Of a DNA stretch of 64,000 nucleotides, positions 29,175 to 37,187 are shown one piece after another. The notes below the pieces were generated by a model that was not told the DNA's origin, did not search any database, and worked only from the letters and a program-made list of their open reading frames with translations. This DNA comes from Anaerolineales bacterium (GTDB lineage: Bacteria > Chloroflexota > Anaerolineae > Anaerolineales > JABWBV01): contig JACKAX010000006.1 of NCBI GenBank assembly GCA_020634875.1, positions 1-64,000 of the forward strand, in the 5' to 3' direction. The position numbers were made by a program, and so were the translations under genes. The stretch's first letter is position 1, and every line of letters starts with the position of its first letter.

Positions 29175-29375
29175 ATGATCGACAAAATTCAACCCTACCT
29201 CCCCCTCCTCATCCCCTTGATCATCCTCCAACTCATCCTCATGATCGCCGCCCTCGTAGACCTCGCCCGCCGCGAACGGACTCGCGGTCCCAAATGGGTC
29301 TGGGCACTCGTCATCCTCTTCGTCAACATGATCGGCCCCATCATCTACTTCGTCGCCGGACGGGAAGAAGAATGA
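29175..29375 (+). CDS. PLDc_N-domain membrane protein (YxlE-like)
   Basis: Small membrane protein of 66 residues with two hydrophobic spans and the PLD-nuclease-N-terminal-type ending GPIIYFVAGREEE. In the Bacillus sigY operon the same kind of protein (YxlE) precedes an ABC ATPase (YxlF) and a permease (YxlG), and the order is identical here. The ATG at 29175 was chosen because the longer frame to 29118 adds a non-homologous tail. The stop overlaps the ATPase start (ATGA). Confidence 0.78.
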   Translation: MIDKIQPYLPLLIPLIILQLILMIAALVDLARRERTRGPKWVWALVILFVNMIGPIIYFVAGREEE

Positions 29376-30328
29376 CCCCCGATGCCGCCGTTTACTGCGA
29401 AAACCTGAGCAAACGCTACAAAGAAGTCGTCGCCCTCGACGACCTGACCCTCTCCGTCCCCTACGGCTCCATCTTCGGCTTCCTGGGGCGCAACGGTGCG
29501 GGCAAAACCACCACCATGCGTCTGCTCGCGGGCCTTGCTCTCCCCACCACCGGGCGCGCCTGGATCGCCGGGCTGGAAACCACCCAAACCTCCTCCGGCA
29601 ACGCCAACTTCCTCGCCCGCACCCGCTTTGGCTACCTCCCCCAGGCCCCCGCGTTTTACACCTGGATGTCTGCCCGCGAATACCTTGATTACGTTGCCCA
29701 AATTCAAGGCCTCACCCCCGCCGAACGCAAACAACAAATCCCCGAACTCCTCGACCTTTCCGACCTCAAAGGCGCGTCCAAACGACGCATCGGCGGCTTT
29801 TCCGGGGGGATGCTCCAACGCCTCGGCCTCGCGCAAGCCCTCATCGGCCATCCGCCCGTCCTCCTGCTCGACGAACCCACCAGCGCCCTCGACCCTGCGG
29901 GGCGGCGCGAAGTCCTCGACATGATCGCCCAACTTCGTGGACAGACCACCGTTTTCCTCTCCAGTCACATCCTCACCGACATTGAACGCGTCTGCGACAC
30001 CCTCGCCGTCCTGCACAATGGCAAACTCGTCCTCGTCTCCGGGCGGGATGAACTCCTCGCAAAATACGCCACCAATGCCGCCGAACTCGTCTTTGAACCC
30101 GCACCCGACCCCCTCGCGGGCACCCTCCCTCGCCTCGCCGAAACCCTCCGTGCCCAACCCTGGGTCGCCAGCGTGACCCACGAAGACCAAACCCTCCGCG
30201 TCCTCGTTCAAGATTTGCCCCGCGCCAAACAAGAACTCCTCCCCCTCATCCTCGCCCACGGCCTGATTCTCAACCGCTATGAATGGGTACGCCCCTCCCT
30301 CGAAGAAATCTTCCTGCAACTGACTTAG
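29372..30328 (+). CDS. ABC transporter ATP-binding protein (YxlF-like)
   Basis: Nucleotide-binding subunit of an ABC exporter, 318 residues. It shows Walker A GRNGAGKTTT, signature SGGMLQRLGLAQAL, Walker B VLLLDEPTSALDP and the H-loop SSHIL, plus the C-terminal domain usual for ABC-2 type exporters. It is coupled by 4-nt overlap to the small membrane protein and abuts the permease fusion directly. The adjacent convergent lasso cluster has no transporter of its own, so a role in lasso-peptide export or immunity is an attractive inference. Codons are strikingly C-rich at the third position. Confidence 0.93.
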   Translation: MTPDAAVYCENLSKRYKEVVALDDLTLSVPYGSIFGFLGRNGAGKTTTMRLLAGLALPTTGRAWIAGLETTQTSSGNANFLARTRFGYLPQAPAFYTWMSAREYLDYVAQIQGLTPAERKQQIPELLDLSDLKGASKRRIGGFSGGMLQRLGLAQALIGHPPVLLLDEPTSALDPAGRREVLDMIAQLRGQTTVFLSSHILTDIERVCDTLAVLHNGKLVLVSGRDELLAKYATNAAELVFEPAPDPLAGTLPRLAETLRAQPWVASVTHEDQTLRVLVQDLPRAKQELLPLILAHGLILNRYEWVRPSLEEIFLQLT

Positions 30329-31966
30329 ATGCTGACCTTCGCCTACACCCTCTCCATTTTGCTGATGATCTTCCTGCCCGTCCTCTTTGCCGCAGGCTGG
30401 CGGCGGATGCGGCCCACGCCCTGGCTTTTATTCAGCTTGGGAACCCTGACGTTTATCCTCTCCCAGGCCGTTCACCTGCCCCTCAACCATTGGCTGACCA
30501 CGATCAACTTTCTCCCGACCCCCGCGGACACCACGTTCCCGCTCTGGCGCAGCGCCCTGACACTGGGCCTCACGGCGGGACTATGTGAAGAACTGGCCCG
30601 CGCGGGGGGTTACGCCCTCCTTCAACGCTGGAAACCCACGTGGCTCCGCTTCCAAGATGGCGTCATGCTTGGCCTCGGCCACGGCGGATTCGAGGCTATC
30701 GTCTTCGGCGGCATCCTCACCGCGGCCTCGATCAGCGCCCTGCTCCCCCTCATCGGTACGGACCTCACCACCCTCGGCCTGTCCCCCGCCCAAATCGCCA
30801 CCCTCCAACTCCAACTCAACAGTTTGACCGCCGCCCCATGGAATGCCGGACTGCCCCTGCTTGAACGGTTGATTGCCATGACTGGGCACGTGGTTTTTTC
30901 GCTGCTGGTGTGGCAGGCTTTTGCCCGGAATCAGGTTCGCAGGGATTGGTTTTGGATTCTGATCGCGGTCTTGTATCATGCGCTGTTAGATTTTGTCGCG
31001 GTGATTGGGGTCACGAAAATGCAGGGGCAGGCACTGTTGTTGGAACTGGTATTCGCTGGGGTGGTGTTGCCCGGTGCGGGGTGGGCGGTGTGGCGCGTCC
31101 GGCGGGAGCGCGTGCCCCGTCCGCAGGCTGATCTGCGCGGGGAGTGGCGGGTGTTCGGCATCGTTACCATGAAAGAATTTCGCCAACTCTGGCGCACAAA
31201 CCGGTTGCTCGTCATGGGCGCGGTCTTCCTCCTCTTCGGGATGGGTTCGCCCCTGCTGGCAAAACTGACCCCCGAACTTTTACATTCCCTCCCCGGCGCG
31301 GAACAGATCGCCAACCTGATCCCCGAACCGACTGCCGGGGACGCGATGGCGCAGTATCTCAAGAACCTGTCGCAGTTCGGCTTTCTGCTGGCGATTTTGC
31401 TGGTGATGGGAACAGTCGTTGGCGAGAAGGAACGGGGCGTTGTGCCGATGATTTTGAGCAAACCGATGCCGCGTTGGGCGTTCATATTGAGCAAGTTCAC
31501 CGCGCAGGCCGGGATGTATTTGGGCGGATTCGCACTGGCGGGGCTGGGGGCGTATTACTACACGGTGATTTTGTTCGGTGCGTTGGATTTTGGCGGGTTT
31601 GCGCTGTTAAACGGGCTTTTGTTTTTGTGGCTGATGACGTTTGTCGCGCTCGGTCTATTGGGCAGTGTACTCGGACGTTCAACGGTGGCGGCGGGGGGGA
31701 TTGGACTGGGGTTTGCCGTGATCATGATGCTGTTAGGGAGCCTGCCCCAATACGGCGCACTGTTCCCCGGCGGGTTGATGGCCTGGGCCGCGCAGGTGGG
31801 GGCGCAAGCGGCTGGGGCACCGGCGTCCGCGTTGAGTGGGGGGCTGGGGAGCGGTGCCGCGGTCGGGATGGTCACCGCGCAGGGGGGGGCGGCGGCTTCA
31901 TCGGTCGCGTTGATCTTGTTGATGTTAATTTTGGCAATTGGGGTGTTTGAACAGCAGGAACTCTAA
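30329..31966 (+). CDS. Fusion of YhfC-type intramembrane protease and ABC-2 permease
   Basis: Membrane protein of 545 residues made of two normally separate families. Residues 1-265 resemble YhfC-family glutamic-type intramembrane proteases, with Glu87/Glu88 (CEELARAGGY), GLGHGGFEA (His118, Glu122), His187 and His217. Residues 275-545 resemble an ABC-2 type permease, starting WRVFGIVTMKEFRQ as free-standing permeases do, with about six spans. The frame is continuous, with no sign of a frameshift. It is the transmembrane partner of the ATPase just upstream. The protease part might cleave the exported substrate or a signalling protein. Codon third positions flip from C-rich to G-rich near nt 30860, inside the protease half rather than at the domain joint. 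Confidence 0.8.
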   Translation: MLTFAYTLSILLMIFLPVLFAAGWRRMRPTPWLLFSLGTLTFILSQAVHLPLNHWLTTINFLPTPADTTFPLWRSALTLGLTAGLCEELARAGGYALLQRWKPTWLRFQDGVMLGLGHGGFEAIVFGGILTAASISALLPLIGTDLTTLGLSPAQIATLQLQLNSLTAAPWNAGLPLLERLIAMTGHVVFSLLVWQAFARNQVRRDWFWILIAVLYHALLDFVAVIGVTKMQGQALLLELVFAGVVLPGAGWAVWRVRRERVPRPQADLRGEWRVFGIVTMKEFRQLWRTNRLLVMGAVFLLFGMGSPLLAKLTPELLHSLPGAEQIANLIPEPTAGDAMAQYLKNLSQFGFLLAILLVMGTVVGEKERGVVPMILSKPMPRWAFILSKFTAQAGMYLGGFALAGLGAYYYTVILFGALDFGGFALLNGLLFLWLMTFVALGLLGSVLGRSTVAAGGIGLGFAVIMMLLGSLPQYGALFPGGLMAWAAQVGAQAAGAPASALSGGLGSGAAVGMVTAQGGAAASSVALILLMLILAIGVFEQQEL

Positions 31967-32035: not shown

Positions 32036-33169
32036 CTATCGCATACGGTAGCGGCGAAACCAGAGTAACGGACGCAACACAAAATACAAGGGGAAAAGAG
32101 CGTCAGGCAGGGCGATTTCTTCCCAATCATCTTCCGTCATCCACAGCTGGCTGAGCACGGCGAGTTTGAAACGCCAGGAGGCTTTCATGCCCGTGCCGTA
32201 GTGCAAGGCGCGCCAACGGCGTCCCTGTCCCGCGCCCGCCCCGAACCCCTCAAAAATAATTTCCATCGCTTGCGCTGCGAAACGTTGAATGGCGCGGTCT
32301 TCCAGCAGCGGGGAAAGCGCGGGGGGAATGGGGGCCTGAAACAAAGCGCGGGCCAACAACAACGCCTGCCCCAATGGACGCAACAAATCGAGTGCGTCCA
32401 TCTGTGCACGCACAGTTTCCCAATCTGGGCTGGGGGTTTGGCGCAGGAACATGGCGATGTCAGCCAGCCATTTGAGTTGTTCCCAGCCATGGCGCGCGCC
32501 ATGCAAGATCAGGTAACACACCTGATCGGGATCAGCGAGGCGGCCTGGGGTGGGGGCGGCCTGGGCGCGTTGCCAGATTTGTTCCATCGCCGCGGGGGGG
32601 AGGAGGTCGGGGGTAGCGAGGGTCCAGTGCAGTTCGAGGTGGGTGCCCCGCATGGTGTGGACGTACACGAAGTGGTGGATGAGGCGTTTGAAGACGCGCC
32701 ATTGCCGGGGGGTCAGGTCTACCGCGGGGGTAGTGCGTTGAAAGCCCGCTTGTTTGAGGCGCACGTCGGTTTCGTCGAGTTGGGTTTCGTGAATCAACAC
32801 GTCCAAATCCGCGGTGGTGCGGAGGGCAACGTCGCCGTACAACTGTTGGGAGAGAGGCGGGCCTTTGAGCAGGCAAAAGGGGATGCCCGCGGGGGCGAGG
32901 AGGGCGCGGAGGGTGTTCGCTTCAACCATCAGGGCGAGGACGCGCTGACGGTTTTGGGCGGTGCGGGTTTGCAAGGCGGCAAGGGTCTCGGGGGGAACGA
33001 GGTCGGCGGCATGGCGTTTCAGGTTGGCGTAGAGGAGGGGGGCGAGGTGATGGTAGATGGTCAGAGTTAGGAACGCGGGCCAATCCACGCTCGATTGGCA
33101 GAGGTGGCGTAGGTGGTCGCGTTCGTCCGGTTGGAGGGGGAAAAGTGCCCCGGCCAGGATCAGACGCAT
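32036..33169 (-). CDS. Nucleotidyltransferase-family protein of the lasso cluster
   Basis: Predicted nucleotidyltransferase of 377 residues, similar to the uncharacterised PF14907-type proteins (NTP_transf_5) that recur in lasso-peptide clusters. The diagnostic region is CLLKGPPLSQQLYGDVALRT followed by ADLDVLI, giving the metal-binding Asp121/Asp123 pair. It is the last gene of the cluster, 24 nt after the cyclase gene; an alternative TTG start overlapping the cyclase stop (33196) exists. It may tailor the peptide, perhaps acting on a phosphorylated terminus, which is inference. No Shine-Dalgarno site. Confidence 0.82.
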   Translation of the reverse strand: MRLILAGALFPLQPDERDHLRHLCQSSVDWPAFLTLTIYHHLAPLLYANLKRHAADLVPPETLAALQTRTAQNRQRVLALMVEANTLRALLAPAGIPFCLLKGPPLSQQLYGDVALRTTADLDVLIHETQLDETDVRLKQAGFQRTTPAVDLTPRQWRVFKRLIHHFVYVHTMRGTHLELHWTLATPDLLPPAAMEQIWQRAQAAPTPGRLADPDQVCYLILHGARHGWEQLKWLADIAMFLRQTPSPDWETVRAQMDALDLLRPLGQALLLARALFQAPIPPALSPLLEDRAIQRFAAQAMEIIFEGFGAGAGQGRRWRALHYGTGMKASWRFKLAVLSQLWMTEDDWEEIALPDALFPLYFVLRPLLWFRRYRMR

Positions 33170-33192
33170 TTCGGGGGAGATGGTTGCCAGGT

Positions 33193-35100
33193 TCAAAAGC
33201 GAGTCAAAAAAAGGCCGGCCATCACGCCGCGGGTGAGGACGCTGCCACATTGCGCGGTCAGGTGGGGGGTGAAGGTAGAGGAATCGCGTTCCAATGTGCG
33301 GAGGAGGGCGTGAAGTTTGGGCAGGTCTAAGAGCTCACGGGCGAGGGAAGTGTTTTCGAGTTGGGCCATGACGGCGTGCCAGGCGGGAAGTTCGGCGCGG
33401 ATGCGTGGGGCGAGGTCTGCCGCTTGAAGTCCGCGAGAGCGGTTCAGACGCACTTCGTCGGGCAAAAGACCCTGCATGGCGCGGCGAATGAGGGCGCGGT
33501 CTTGTCCGTTGCGTTGGTACTGCGCGTCCGGGATGGCGAAACATAGTTCGACAAGGCGTTGATCCATCGTCGGGTCGCGGATTTCCAGGCCATGCGCGGT
33601 CCCGTTTTCTGCCCAGGTTGCACCGATGGTGCTGGAGCCAGGACTGAAGATTTGCAAACGTTCTTGTCGGGGGGCGCGGGGAGGGAGGAAGTGTGGGTCG
33701 TGCGCGGCTTCTTTCATACGTTGTTTCAGGTGAAGGGCTTGTGCGGTGTGGGGGTGGAGGGCGGAGTAGGCAGCCCAGGGTGTGGCGCGCATTGCAGAAA
33801 AGGAGGCAGTCAGGCGGGCGGCTTGTAAACGAAGGGGATGCAAAAGATAGTGCCGGAGAACCGTCCACGGCGAGAGGCCGTGTGCGGATCGGCGGAGCGT
33901 TTGCCATTGACCTGAAAGCAGGAGGGACCAGAAATTCGGCGGACTGCCACGCCACGAGATGGTGCTATTGCCGACTTGCCCGGTCAAGACGATTTCGCAG
34001 CCCATTGCGCGGGCTTGAGTCAACAGCGCGTCGATCCAGAAATAATTCCCCGCGGCGTGCATGGGGCTATCGTGCGCGTCCAACGAACGCTGAATACCCG
34101 TGAGTGGGCTAACCGTCTCGGCGCGGATGATTTCCACATCCAGGTTGGGGATGAATTGGCGGACGCATTCGACGAGCGTGGTTTCGTCGCCGTAGCGGCG
34201 GGGGAGGAGGAGGCCGTCGAGGGGGTAAAGCGGAGCGGCGGTAAAGGCAAGGAGGCGTTCGCCCCGCGCGTGCAGAGCTTCCGCGGCCAGAGCAACGACT
34301 GAGCCAGAATCCAGGCCACTGCTGAGGGTCGCACTGAGGGGGGCGGGCGCATCGGCGGAGGGGCCGCGTAAACGGGTTTGGACGGCGGTGCGATAGGTTT
34401 CGAGGAAAGTTTCGAGATAAGCTTCGTCCGAGGGGAGGTGGAGGGGCGGGAGGTTGTCGAGAGACCAGTATTGGCGAGTATGGGGGTGGGTGAACGGGGC
34501 AGGAAGCGTGAGGGTATGGGCGGGGGGGAGTTGGCAGAGGTTTTCGTAGGCAGTTTGTACGCCATCCCCAGGCCAAGAGACGAGGACTTGGGCGATGCGG
34601 AAGAGGTTGGGGCGTTTAGGAATTTCGGGGAGGGCCAACAATGCTTTGAGGCTGGAGGCAAACGCGAAAAAGTCCGGGCCGTGATAATAGTAGAGGCTGC
34701 TGATTCCGCAGGGGTCGCGGGCGAGGAAGAGTTTTTGTGTGCGCGCATCCCACGCGGCAAACGCCCAATCACCGAGCAGATGTTGGACACAGGTTTCGCC
34801 CCAGTGGAGATAGGCGTGGAGGATGAGGGTTTCATCATTGGGCAAAGGGTCGGTTTGCCCCAAGATGGCCCAAAGTTCGTCCCGTTTATCGAGGCGTCCG
34901 TGGGCGGTCAAGGCGACGCCGCGTGGGGCATCCTGTGGGATAGAACTGTGGGGACGCGTAATCCCTAACCCAACCGGACCATTTAGCCAGCATGTACCGG
35001 CTGTCTGTGCGCCAGAAGGCATCGCCGCGCCCATGTGGGTGAGCGTTTCCCGAAGGACAGGGCGATAATCTTGATGAAAAAGGCCAAAAATACCGGACAT
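33193..35100 (-). CDS. Lasso-peptide cyclase (asparagine-synthetase-like, C protein)
   Basis: Predicted macrolactam synthetase of 635 residues that adenylates an Asp/Glu side chain of the core peptide so the new N-terminus can close a ring. The C-terminal domain has the ATP-pyrophosphatase loop SSGLDSGS (261-267). The N-terminal glutaminase-like domain begins MSGIFGLF, so the catalytic Cys2 of true asparagine synthetases is Ser and glutamine hydrolysis is not expected, as fits a lasso cyclase. The frame is open to a GTG at 35172, but the domain starts at 35100. That ATG follows directly on a terminator T-tract and has no Shine-Dalgarno site, so translation may be low or depend on the structure. 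Confidence 0.88.
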   Translation of the reverse strand: MSGIFGLFHQDYRPVLRETLTHMGAAMPSGAQTAGTCWLNGPVGLGITRPHSSIPQDAPRGVALTAHGRLDKRDELWAILGQTDPLPNDETLILHAYLHWGETCVQHLLGDWAFAAWDARTQKLFLARDPCGISSLYYYHGPDFFAFASSLKALLALPEIPKRPNLFRIAQVLVSWPGDGVQTAYENLCQLPPAHTLTLPAPFTHPHTRQYWSLDNLPPLHLPSDEAYLETFLETYRTAVQTRLRGPSADAPAPLSATLSSGLDSGSVVALAAEALHARGERLLAFTAAPLYPLDGLLLPRRYGDETTLVECVRQFIPNLDVEIIRAETVSPLTGIQRSLDAHDSPMHAAGNYFWIDALLTQARAMGCEIVLTGQVGNSTISWRGSPPNFWSLLLSGQWQTLRRSAHGLSPWTVLRHYLLHPLRLQAARLTASFSAMRATPWAAYSALHPHTAQALHLKQRMKEAAHDPHFLPPRAPRQERLQIFSPGSSTIGATWAENGTAHGLEIRDPTMDQRLVELCFAIPDAQYQRNGQDRALIRRAMQGLLPDEVRLNRSRGLQAADLAPRIRAELPAWHAVMAQLENTSLARELLDLPKLHALLRTLERDSSTFTPHLTAQCGSVLTRGVMAGLFLTRF

Positions 35101-35174: not shown

Positions 35175-35324
35175 TTAGGACATGCCATCTCCATCCAGGC
35201 TGGGGCCTTGCTGGAATAACGCTTCGTTGAGCGGAACGCGTTCAAAGGAGGGTGTGACCCAGGGTTGAGGGGCTGGGGTTTCGGATTGGGGTTGGGGTTC
35301 TTGGGTTTCGGTGGGTTGTTCCAT
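35175..35324 (-). CDS. Lasso-peptide precursor (A), 49 residues
   Basis: Short gene between the B2 and cyclase genes. ATAAGGAG lies 8 nt before the ATG. The leader is Pro/Glu/Gln-rich and contains WVTPSFERV, a fit to the YxxPxL-type motif that PqqD-like B1 proteins bind. It ends NEALFQQGPSLDGDGMS. Core boundaries are uncertain: Phe start gives 13 residues with an 8-residue ring to Asp8; Gly start gives 10 residues with Asp7. The Thr usual at leader position -2 is absent. The terminal Ser fits HprK-like kinase tailoring as in paeninodin. The gene has its own -10 box upstream and its own terminator downstream. Precursor identity rests on position, motif and neighbours. Confidence 0.8.
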   Translation of the reverse strand: MEQPTETQEPQPQSETPAPQPWVTPSFERVPLNEALFQQGPSLDGDGMS

Positions 35325-35349
35325 AGTGGATACTCCTTATCAAAATCAT

Positions 35350-35364: not shown

Positions 35365-35479
35365 TAACTACTCAGACCCTAAAGGTTTTTCTCGATGAAG
35401 GGATACATTTGCAGACGGAAAGCATTGCAGGCGAGCTTCTCTTGCAAACGAAACCTTTAGGGTCTGGTCTGAGTAGTTA
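35365..35479. repeat. 115-bp palindromic element with 24-nt arms
   Basis: TAACTACTCAGACCCTAAAG plus GTTT (35365-35388) is mirrored at 35451-35479; the right arm carries a 5-nt duplication (ggtct). The arms enclose about 62 nt. The right arm supplies the last codons (VTTQTRP) and stop of the B2 gene. It looks like a dispersed palindromic or MITE-like repeat that landed between B2 and the precursor gene. Confidence 0.7.
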
Positions 35480-36008
35480 CAGAGGCGGGATAATGTGCCA
35501 GGATGTGGTAGTCCTGTCCTTCTGTCTGTCCGAGGATCACTTTCGGCCCATCTTGTAACCAGACATGGGCGGTCAGACCAAGACCAGGGAGGACGGCTGC
35601 GCCGTAATACAAGGTTGTGCCAATGCCTAACCGTCGTAGGAGCGCCTGTCCGGCAATGGCCTGCGGAAAACATACGGTTTGGCCGGGTAACAACTGGCTT
35701 GCTTCGTCAATTAACCACTGTACACTCCTTTGGAACTGTTCGCGTTCGGTTCCGGTGATTTCATGCTGATTGACAACCAAAAAGGCGGGCAAAAGGGCCG
35801 CGGCTTTTTGGCGTCGGGAAAACGTCTCTTCGGGGCGTTTGGGAGGACGCGCAAAGAGCCAGATCAGGCGGCGAAAGGGGATGACGCGTAAGGTCAACCG
35901 CGCGGCCATCAAGTATCCCATGGTTTCCAGCACGTAAAAGCGCGCGGGGCCGGGGATTTGCCGAAGATGGGCCACACGTTTAGCCAGCGAAGTCCACAAG
36001 CCCGGCAT
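35457..36008 (-). CDS. Lasso-peptide leader protease (B2, transglutaminase-like)
   Basis: Cysteine protease that removes the leader before cyclisation, 183 residues, close to the family size. The catalytic set is Cys113 (QTVCFPQA), His148 (TAHVWLQDG) and Asp153 nearby; the N-terminal region LETMGYLMAARLTLRV is typical. The ATG at 36008 lies inside the end of the B1 gene (29-nt overlap) and follows AAGGA by 7 nt; an earlier start at 36059 lacks support. The last seven residues are encoded by the palindromic repeat at 35365-35479. Confidence 0.87.
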   Translation of the reverse strand: MPGLWTSLAKRVAHLRQIPGPARFYVLETMGYLMAARLTLRVIPFRRLIWLFARPPKRPEETFSRRQKAAALLPAFLVVNQHEITGTEREQFQRSVQWLIDEASQLLPGQTVCFPQAIAGQALLRRLGIGTTLYYGAAVLPGLGLTAHVWLQDGPKVILGQTEGQDYHILAHYPASVTTQTRP

Positions 36009-36267
36009 CGAATAATCCTTGCAATAAAAAGGATACTTCCTGGCGGCAGGTTGGCTCATCTACCGCGTATTCGTGGCGGAGTTGGGCACAAATTGCGTCA
36101 AAAGATGTGGGAGTGGCGAGGAGGTCCCACACCCGTCCGGCGGTGGTGTTGAGGGCATAACAATACCCGGCTTGCACATCAATTGCCAGCAGTTCCTCAT
36201 CCAGTTGGGAAAAGGGGAGGTCTATTTTTCGGGTAAGGAAGGTAGTGGGGGATAAGGTAGGTTTCAT
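35980..36267 (-). CDS. PqqD-like RRE protein (lasso B1)
   Basis: RiPP recognition element of 95 residues that binds the leader peptide and delivers it to the B2 protease. The PqqD fold is recognisable from DEELLAIDVQAGYCYALNTT, the GRVWDLL helix and the closing LLQGLFDAGLVD. It starts 3 nt after the kinase stop and overlaps B2, so B1 and B2 are translationally coupled. Confidence 0.88.
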   Translation of the reverse strand: MKPTLSPTTFLTRKIDLPFSQLDEELLAIDVQAGYCYALNTTAGRVWDLLATPTSFDAICAQLRHEYAVDEPTCRQEVSFLLQGLFDAGLVDFAG

Positions 36268-36270
36268 ATT

Positions 36271-37179
36271 TTATTTGGCTGCCCAGTGCATTTGCAGTTG
36301 AGTTATCGTCGGTACGATTTCGGTGACATCGCGCGGGCGACGCAATTCCCAAACGGGCACGCGGCGCACGAGTTCCAAAAATTGCTGCCAGTAGGAACCC
36401 ATTTTGCCCATTGGCTCGATCAGTGCGCCACGATAGGTCGCGGCAGCGATCAGGCGACGGAGGGCGATTTGCCCGGTGAGGCGGGTGAGGGAGAAGTCGC
36501 CCCATTCGAGCAGGTAAAGCGCGCGGAGGGGAACAGGCCGTTGGAGGTAATTGCCCGGTATCTGCATGTGAAATTTCTCATGACGAAAATGATCCCGCTC
36601 TAACATGGTGTGATCCCAGGCTAGCGCGTCGAGGGTATCTTGCCAGAGTTTTAAACGAGGCGCGGTCGGGTAAAGGATAGGTTGTCCATGAACGGGAAGA
36701 TCACATCGCACGAGATCATCGCTCACGAACGGGTAACCTGCTTCGGTCAACCACGCCGCTAATGTAGATTTGCCATGCCCTGGGGCAGCACAAAAAGCTA
36801 CCGCTTCTTCCCCTACCTGGACGGCGCTGGCATGTAACACTAACAGATCACGTTGATAGCATAAGGCTCCCCAAGCTGAACCGAGCAAATACAAGCGAAT
36901 TTCACGGTTTTCTGCCTGTTGCGCGGGAAAGATTTTTATCTCGTTCCCGTGAGCAACCCAATACGTAGCCACTTCTGGAATACAAAAGCGATATTCATCT
37001 GCGCGGACGAATGGAAGTTCTTCCCTTACTTCCTCCACCAGATGAACAAGCCGGATGTTTACATCAGCTTGCGGAAACTGGTTTTCTTGTTCAAACTTTT
37101 TCCACTCCGGGATTTGAAGTTGTGAGTCAATTCTTAAACCAGCGTAACAATAACACCAATATTCTTTAGAAGATGACAT
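36271..37179 (-). CDS. HprK-like kinase of the lasso cluster
   Basis: Predicted peptide kinase of 302 residues related to the C-terminal domain of HPr kinase/phosphorylase. It has HASAV (His116), the P-loop APGHGKST (132-139) and VSDDLV (Asp154/Asp155). Such kinases in lasso clusters (paeninodin type) phosphorylate the C-terminal Ser of the precursor, and the precursor here ends in Ser. It is the first gene of the cluster. A TTG at 37185 is in frame, but ATG 37179 is preferred; the -10 box sits only a few nt upstream and there is no Shine-Dalgarno site, so the operon mRNA is probably leaderless. Confidence 0.85.
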   Translation of the reverse strand: MSSSKEYWCYCYAGLRIDSQLQIPEWKKFEQENQFPQADVNIRLVHLVEEVREELPFVRADEYRFCIPEVATYWVAHGNEIKIFPAQQAENREIRLYLLGSAWGALCYQRDLLVLHASAVQVGEEAVAFCAAPGHGKSTLAAWLTEAGYPFVSDDLVRCDLPVHGQPILYPTAPRLKLWQDTLDALAWDHTMLERDHFRHEKFHMQIPGNYLQRPVPLRALYLLEWGDFSLTRLTGQIALRRLIAAATYRGALIEPMGKMGSYWQQFLELVRRVPVWELRRPRDVTEIVPTITQLQMHWAAK

Positions 37180-37187
37180 TGACAATA

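What the first reader, a model, noticed from the sequence alone, without database searches (positions are those of the whole stretch)
35175..35324. Unusual short precursor with a 10-13 residue core and no leader Thr
The 49-residue peptide has the WVTPSFERV recognition motif and an ideal Shine-Dalgarno site but ends FQQGPSLDGDGMS. Spacing from the recognition motif suggests a core starting at Phe (13 residues, ring to Asp8); a Gly start gives only 10 residues with Asp7. Both are at or below the shortest known lasso lengths as I recall them, and the conserved Thr at -2 is replaced. It may be a macrolactam without a threaded tail, or a new sub-family. It was found by reading the gap between B2 and C.
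Basis: partly seen in the sequence, partly recalled or inferred. Interest (0 to 1): 0.85.

Follow-up and report, generated by a model that had tools for sequence, protein, structure and literature searches.

The report
Short lasso-peptide precursor, new sub-family
A 49-residue gene product in this bacterium looks like the precursor of a very short lasso-type peptide; it belongs to a family in which the usual signal residue at the cutting site (threonine) is replaced by alanine and the last residue is always serine, probably to receive a phosphate.

Summary
The peptide is real, at the stated place, in a minus-strand operon: HprK-type kinase, B1 (RRE), B2 protease, precursor, cyclase C, NTP_transf_5. 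It is not a lone oddity: 53 database precursors including it, plus four read from other genomes, share W--P-[FL]----L-[ED]A and a hypervariable 13-18 residue tail. Ala at W+13 and a C-terminal Ser hold in all 57; Asp/Glu is at tail position 8 or 9 in 47 of the 53. Spacing in paeninodin-type leaders and Thr(-2) siblings puts the cut after Leu(W+14): core FQQGPSLD-GDGMS, ring Phe1-Asp8, five-residue tail, Met12 as likely plug, Ser13 as likely phosphorylation site. The 10-residue Gly-start reading is rejected; a cut one residue later stays open. Thirteen residues equals, not undercuts, the shortest known lasso. The RRE tyrosine reported to contact Thr(-2) is Cys or Ala in 6 of 9 Ala(-2) loci and non-Tyr in 1 of 49 Thr(-2) loci, resting on one or two evolutionary events, with three exceptions. 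Kinase-B1-B2-precursor looks like one cassette joined to different cyclases. Threading and phosphorylation are inferred. New variant of a known kind.

The parts
35175..35324 (-). Precursor gene, 49 aa; leader residues 1-36, predicted core FQQGPSLDGDGMS
   Evidence: family of 53; conservation
35217..35261 (-). Leader recognition motif WVTPSFERVPLNEAL; Trp at -15, Ala at -2, Leu at -1 by the preferred cut
35178..35216 (-). Predicted 13-residue core: ring Phe1-Asp8, loop GDG, plug Met12, C-terminal Ser13
   Evidence: Inferred
35333..35338 (-). Shine-Dalgarno site AAGGAG, 8 nt before the ATG
   Evidence: Sequence
35457..36059 (-). B2 leader peptidase (Transglut_core3; NF033537 lasso B2, 56.4 bits against a cut-off of 33)
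35980..36267 (-). B1, PqqD-type RRE; Cys36 at the place of the tyrosine reported to contact Thr(-2)
36271..37185 (-). HprK-related kinase (HPr kinase/PEPCK fold in the model)
33193..35100 (-). C, asparagine-synthetase-like macrolactam cyclase; starts MSGIFG, i.e. without the glutaminase Cys2 (role of that Cys recalled)
32036..33250 (-). NTP_transf_5 nucleotidyltransferase, PsmN-like tailoring enzyme

Best explanation
The gene encodes the precursor of a short, class II, phosphorylated lasso peptide of a sub-family with Ala at -2. B1 binds WVTPSF. The HprK-type kinase phosphorylates the C-terminal Ser13 on the leader-bearing precursor. B2 cuts between Leu(-1) and Phe1, with Ala(-2) held by an RRE/B2 pocket that lacks the Thr-contacting Tyr. 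C joins the Phe1 amine to the Asp8 side chain around the folded tail (loop GDG, plug Met12). NTP_transf_5 may extend the phosphate with a sugar or nucleotide. Shown from sequence: the genes, the family, the invariant residues and the spacing. Inferred: cleavage site, ring, phosphorylation, threading and order of steps.
For: Lasso B1/B2/C gene set plus kinase and NTP transferase around the ORF. 53 precursors with invariant W, P, L(+10), A(+13) and C-terminal Ser, acid at tail 8 or 9 in 47 of 53 against a shuffled mean of 11.6, maximum 22. Paeninodin-type leader PbaA has its Trp at -15. Acid at core 8 in 22 of 25 hand-listed Thr(-2) siblings when the core is set at Thr+2. Bulky residue at +4 after the ring acid in 36-37 of 57, reached by 0 of 2000 shuffles. 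RRE tyrosine site changed in 6 of 9 Ala(-2) loci against 1 of 49 Thr(-2) loci. Paeninodin and pseudomycoidin precedents for C-terminal Ser phosphorylation and hexose addition (passages).
Against: A cut at W+16 would place an acid at 7-9 in 54 of 57 instead of 50 of 57 and Gly at position 1 in 25 instead of 10. Three Ala(-2) loci (L069, L078, L098) keep the RRE Tyr, and the changed site rests on one clade plus perhaps one more event. Kinases also occur in siblings whose peptides do not end in Ser; BsfK and LppK act on Ser3. In BsfA, replacing Ile(-2) by Ala abolished cutting by its own B2, so Ala is no general substitute. C, B1 and the kinase score below NCBIfam's curated cut-offs. No product is known.
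Confidence: 0.72

Rival explanations
1. Same pathway, but the cut is one residue later: Leu at -2, core QQGPSLDGDGMS (12 residues), ring from Gln1 to Asp7 or Asp9.
For: Acid at 7-9 in 54 of 57 and more Gly at position 1 (25 against 10); the Chloroflexota Thr siblings with Thr at W+14 have their core at W+16.
Against: Would make Pro1 in P0134 and a six-residue ring in L097; the PbaA register is W-15.
Confidence: 0.14
2. The enzymes close the ring but the five-residue tail is not held in it: a branched-cyclic, unthreaded peptide.
For: Five residues after the ring would be the shortest tail; huascopeptin has six, computed from 13 residues and a ring of seven.
Against: Fixed-distance bulky residue at +4 and small residues at +1 and +2; five-residue tails occur in 12 of 57 by one rule and 14 of 57 by the other, and in Aquirufa, Ancylobacter and other loci.
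Confidence: 0.2
3. A linear polyphosphorylated peptide (LPP-like) rather than a macrolactam.
For: LPP clusters share RRE, HprK kinase and NTP transferase (passages).
Against: B2 and C are present here and in L001, L097, L099 and L100; the acid is placed at 8 or 9; LPP leaders carry Tyr.
Confidence: 0.03
4. A chance ORF; the true precursor lies elsewhere.
For: Short ORF without any Pfam or NCBIfam match.
Against: 52 relatives, the same place beside B2 in L001, L097, L099 and L100, no other candidate in the window.
Confidence: 0.01

Closest known systems
Paeninodin / pseudomycoidin type phosphorylated lasso peptides (Bacillota)
   Same: Separate B1 and B2, C, HprK-type kinase, NTP transferase, WxxP leader with Trp at -15, C-terminal Ser
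   Different: Ala instead of Thr at -2; core of 13 instead of about 20 or more residues; RRE Cys36; outside the Bacillota clades of the C and B1 trees
Bsf (Bradymonas) lasso system with Ile(-2) (PMC10368454; abstract and sections 10, 22, 25 and 26 seen)
   Same: Kinase-bearing lasso cluster with a non-Thr residue at -2
   Different: Ile at -2, Tyr leader motif at -17, RRE Tyr kept, kinase acts on Ser3
Huascopeptin
   Same: 13 residues (passage)
   Different: Ring of seven, tail of six; whether it has a tailoring kinase was not looked up
Linear polyphosphorylated peptides, LPP (PMC13381572; abstract, passages and section 8 seen)
   Same: RRE, HprK-like kinase, NTP transferase
   Different: No cyclase, signal-peptidase-type protease, Tyr(-16) leader, phospho-Ser3
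Metanodin (PMC12670498; abstract and passages seen)
   Same: Lasso peptide with an unusual first residue (Asn1); Asn1 is also predicted in 5 of 57 here
   Different: Thr(-2) kept; no kinase is mentioned in its text (0 occurrences)

Membership tests
Lasso peptides | Genes for B1/B2 leader peptidase and asparagine-synthetase-like cyclase beside the precursor | tested here: met
   B2 passes the curated NCBIfam cut-off, C and B1 match lasso models below theirs
Lasso peptides | YxxPx[L] or WxxPx[F/L] RRE motif in the leader | tested here: met
   WVTPSF; W and P invariant in 53 of 53
Lasso peptides | Thr at -2 (usual; Ile/Val known exceptions) | tested here: not met
   Ala in 57 of 57; not a strictly defining feature since Ile(-2) is published
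Lasso peptides | Asp/Glu at core 7-9 for the macrolactam | tested here: met
   Asp8 in the window; 50 of 57 in the family
Lasso peptides | Threaded lariat topology of the product | not testable with these tools
   Only the indirect plug signal
Paeninodin-like phosphorylated lasso peptides | HprK-type kinase and NTP transferase in the cluster, W at -15, C-terminal Ser | tested here: met
Paeninodin-like phosphorylated lasso peptides | Falls in the Bacillota paeninodin clade | tested here: not met
   C and B1 trees
Paeninodin-like phosphorylated lasso peptides | Phosphate on the C-terminal Ser | not testable with these tools
   Ser invariant at the end in 57 of 57
Linear polyphosphorylated peptides (LPP) | Absence of macrolactam cyclase; signal-peptidase-like protease | tested here: not met
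   C and B2 present

The most novel reading that the evidence does not exclude
A naturally minimal lasso (ring of 8, tail of 5) whose lower lock is Met12 together with a phosphorylated, perhaps sugar- or nucleotide-capped, C-terminal Ser added before cyclisation. It is made by a leader-reading cassette (kinase-B1-B2-precursor) that changed its cutting-site specificity from Thr to Ala by losing the RRE tyrosine, and that has taken up unrelated cyclases because the cyclase acts on the freed core.
Probability: 0.3. Interest if true: 0.72.

Novelty: new variant of a known kind. Interest (0 to 1): 0.55.

Why it matters
Thr(-2) was found in all reported lasso precursors until Ile(-2) was shown in 2023 (PMC10368454). 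An Ala(-2) class, part of it with a changed RRE pocket, makes the specificity pocket of B1/B2 directly testable. Five-residue tails recur in the family, which offers natural substrates for asking how small a threaded lasso can be and whether C-terminal phosphorylation serves as a stopper.

Tried and rejected
Rejected: chance ORF; 10-residue Gly-start core; LPP-like linear product; a second precursor in the window (none by the loose pattern). The W+16 cut and the unthreaded product are kept as rivals.

Led nowhere or weak: ten genomes reached through loci, searched with the three-row profile, gave 7 of 10 with a match at E <= 1; of these I followed only L001's and G007's. The same profile found 0 of 400 genomes of the phylum of G002 and 1 of 297 of the phylum of G001, L001's own. 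The 53-row profile found 2 of 396 (class of G010), 2 of 46 (order of G007; the second, G008, carries a Thr sibling peptide), 1 of 6 (order of G793, itself) and 4 of 200 (class of G001); these sets overlap. Of the four, G1146 (L096/L101) gave neither a precursor nor a cluster gene when read. Many first-look candidates were not scored in the large sets, so absence is not shown. The window kinase and B2 alone had no PDB sequence match. Kinase presence does not predict a C-terminal Ser.

Limits and corrections: the loci are the best 80 of 540 confirmed. The first precursor scan covered L001-L033 only; later ones covered all. One search lists 120 of 808 cyclases, and one search compared contig lengths with 40 of those 120. 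The bracketed RRE column was one residue off; searches are right. The 'family motif' pattern was mis-written, so its zero says nothing. One search used 33 rows that I chose and classed by hand, leaving out most Bacillota rows, in which the acid is commonly at core 9. One search used only loci with both a readable precursor and an RRE, with the RRE picked by hand in five loci that have two; some Thr rows came from an automatic pattern and at least one (L071) may be false. The C tree was a quick one with long branches flagged; the B1 tree has few columns.

Full report
Observation. The ORF at 35175-35324 (-) is as described, with AAGGAG 8 nt before the ATG. The minus-strand genes in order of transcription are: HprK-related kinase (36271-37185), PqqD-type B1 (35980-36267), B2 (35457-36059), the precursor, C (33193-35100) and NTP_transf_5 (32036-33250). 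The precursor has no Pfam match at E <= 0.1 and no NCBIfam match at E <= 1. B2 passes NCBIfam's lasso B2 cut-off (56.4 against 33 bits); C and B1 match lasso models below cut-off (315 against 525; 51.5 against 80) and the kinase matches HprK_rel_A below cut-off (44.6 against 200). No whole genome is held for the window, and its taxon was not settled.

A family. A search with the window precursor found one relative, P0002, and a profile of three (window, P0002, L001) found 53 proteins at E <= 10 among 91 candidates. All 53 have W, P(+3), L(+10) and A(+13); L(+14) is in 52; the last residue is Ser in 53. The 15 leader residues are on average 83% identical and the tails 17.5%. Tails have 13 to 18 residues (13 in 7 of 53). 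An acid is at tail position 8 in 30 and at 8 or 9 in 47 of 53; shuffled tails give means of 6.0 and 11.6 and maxima of 15 and 22 in 5000 trials. Five of the 52 other precursors have the same longest-contig length as one of 40 cyclases of the list (84739, 60125, 18320, 5124, 3719): indirect evidence of linkage, since those contigs could not be opened. L001 (MAG labelled Acidobacteriaceae) has the order K-B1-B2-A, then a truncated C-like ORF, another ORF and C. Four more Ala(-2) precursors were read from other genomes (L097, L098, L099, L100); with the 53 they make 57.

Where the core starts. Three arguments favour the cut after Leu(W+14). First, the crystallised paeninodin-type leader PbaA is numbered W-15, P-12, L-10 (section 8 read, PMC13381572), so its core begins at W+15. 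Second, in 25 Thr-containing sibling precursors listed by hand, setting the core at Thr+2 puts an acid at position 8 in 22. With Thr at W+13 the acid is at W+22 in 11 of 14, where most of the Ala family has it, so Ala(W+13) stands in the Thr(-2) place. Third, a W+16 start would give Pro1 in P0134 and a six-residue ring in L097. Against this, a W+16 start gives an acid at 7-9 in 54 of 57, compared with 50 of 57, and Gly at position 1 in 25 compared with 10; I keep it at 0.14. The window core is then FQQGPSLD-GDGMS. A 2026 review gives cores of 13-33 residues (passage), another gives huascopeptin 13 residues with a seven-residue ring (passages). The length is at the known floor, and the tail of five is one shorter than huascopeptin's as computed from those numbers. 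Position 1 in the 57 is S 12, G 10, A 9, L 8, F 5, N 5, D 4, T 2, W 1, K 1; Asn1 was reported as a first for metanodin in 2025 (abstract).

Threading. Taking the acid nearest position 8 as ring acid, the residue four further on is bulky (W, Y, F, M, R, L, I, H, K or Q) in 36 of 57 tails (37 by a second rule); shuffles of each tail give means of about 21.7 and none of 2000 reaches the observed number. Positions +1 and +2 are depleted, +3 is not unusual, and +5 is mildly enriched by the first rule only. A plug at a fixed distance whatever the tail length is what a sterically locked lasso needs. The sequences are related, so the shuffles overstate the strength. In the window this residue is Met12.

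Kinase. The alignment of 25 kinases keeps a P-loop (G136, G138, K139, S140) and D157. The model has mean pLDDT 92.7. The profile's best solved matches are HPr kinases, E 6e-10; Foldseek ranks PEP carboxykinases first and an HPr kinase 49th, E 1.6e-5, two groups that share a fold (recalled). PadeK phosphorylates the C-terminal Ser of its precursor, and PsmK/PsmN (kinase and nucleotidyltransferase) give phosphorylated, hexose-bearing products (passages, PMC9266682). The C-terminal Ser is invariant in the 57 tails, while no position among the first twelve has Ser/Thr in more than 15 of 57. But kinases also sit in siblings whose peptides end otherwise, and BsfK and LppK modify Ser3.

Matching change in the RRE. 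Duan et al. write that an RRE tyrosine (FusE Tyr33, BsfB1 Tyr37) is suspected to engage Thr(-2) (section 25 read). BsfB1 as printed there has one Tyr, number 42 from the first Met and 37 from the second. It aligns with window Cys36 and with a Tyr in PbaB1, TbiB1 and TfuB1. Among loci where both a precursor and an RRE could be read, the site is Cys in 5, Ala in 1 and Tyr in 3 of 9 Ala(-2) loci, and Tyr in 48 and Phe in 1 of 49 Thr(-2) loci (Fisher p 1.4e-5, not corrected for kinship). The B1 tree puts window, L001, L097, L099 and L100 in one clade (100/97), with L038 (Cys) outside and unresolved; L069, L078 and L098 are the exceptions. So the pairing rests on one or two events.

A cassette and its cyclase. 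The window kinase and B1 are closest to Ala(-2) loci (L001, L099, L100, L097, and for the kinase a gene of L098); B2 to L001, L097 and L099, then L003 (unclassed) before L100. After L001, the closest C proteins are from L002 (Thr), L003 (unclassed) and L004 (Thr). NTP_transf_5 is closest to Bacillota copies, about 30%. In the C tree the starred branches force at least three changes for the Ala label (11 rows, two of them without an RRE). Gene order agrees: K-B1-B2-A-C in window and L001, C-K-B1-B2-A in L097, L099 and L100; L098 differs, with C-A-K and its B1 further on. The simplest reading is that the genes that read the leader travel together while the cyclase was exchanged.

Prior art. Literature searches listed one paper on a non-Thr penultimate residue (PMC10368454, Ile/Val) and none that I recognised from title and abstract on Ala(-2); subscription journals are mostly not held. 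By sequence it meets the criteria of lasso peptides, departs at -2, and resembles paeninodin-type phosphorylated lassos without falling in their Bacillota clade. Verdict: a real Ala(-2) sub-family of short, probably phosphorylated lasso peptides.

Noticed in passing
35365-35479: Perfect inverted arms (14 and 16 nt, overlapping) with TA at both outer ends, about 115 bp, between precursor and B2; MITE-like. The last codons of B2 lie inside it. No second copy in the window.
   Followed up: partly
29294-31966: Convergent ABC transporter pair whose permease is fused to a YhfC-type intramembrane protease; whether it exports the peptide is unknown.
   Followed up: partly
L056, L069, L078, L010: 13-residue predicted cores (ring 8, tail 5, ending in Ser) in Aquirufa (three, Thr(-2)), Ancylobacter, Xanthobacteraceae 501b and a Desulfuromonadales MAG: the short core is not confined to the window family.
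   Followed up: partly
L007, L008, L009, L011, L083, L090: Thr(-2) siblings with a Gly-Ser at core 4-5 and no C-terminal Ser although a kinase is present: perhaps ring-Ser phosphorylation as in Bsf.
   Followed up: no
L001:8686-9597; L100:2-337: Sulfotransferase genes near the precursor in two clusters (the second a fragment just under the Pfam cut-off).
   Followed up: no
L001:4374-4640: Truncated second cyclase start between precursor and intact C, with an unrelated ORF in between: a trace of cyclase remodelling.
   Followed up: no
L015:10436-12142; L038:2364-4229: Single ORFs matching both B2 and NTP_transf_5, apparent fusions.
   Followed up: no
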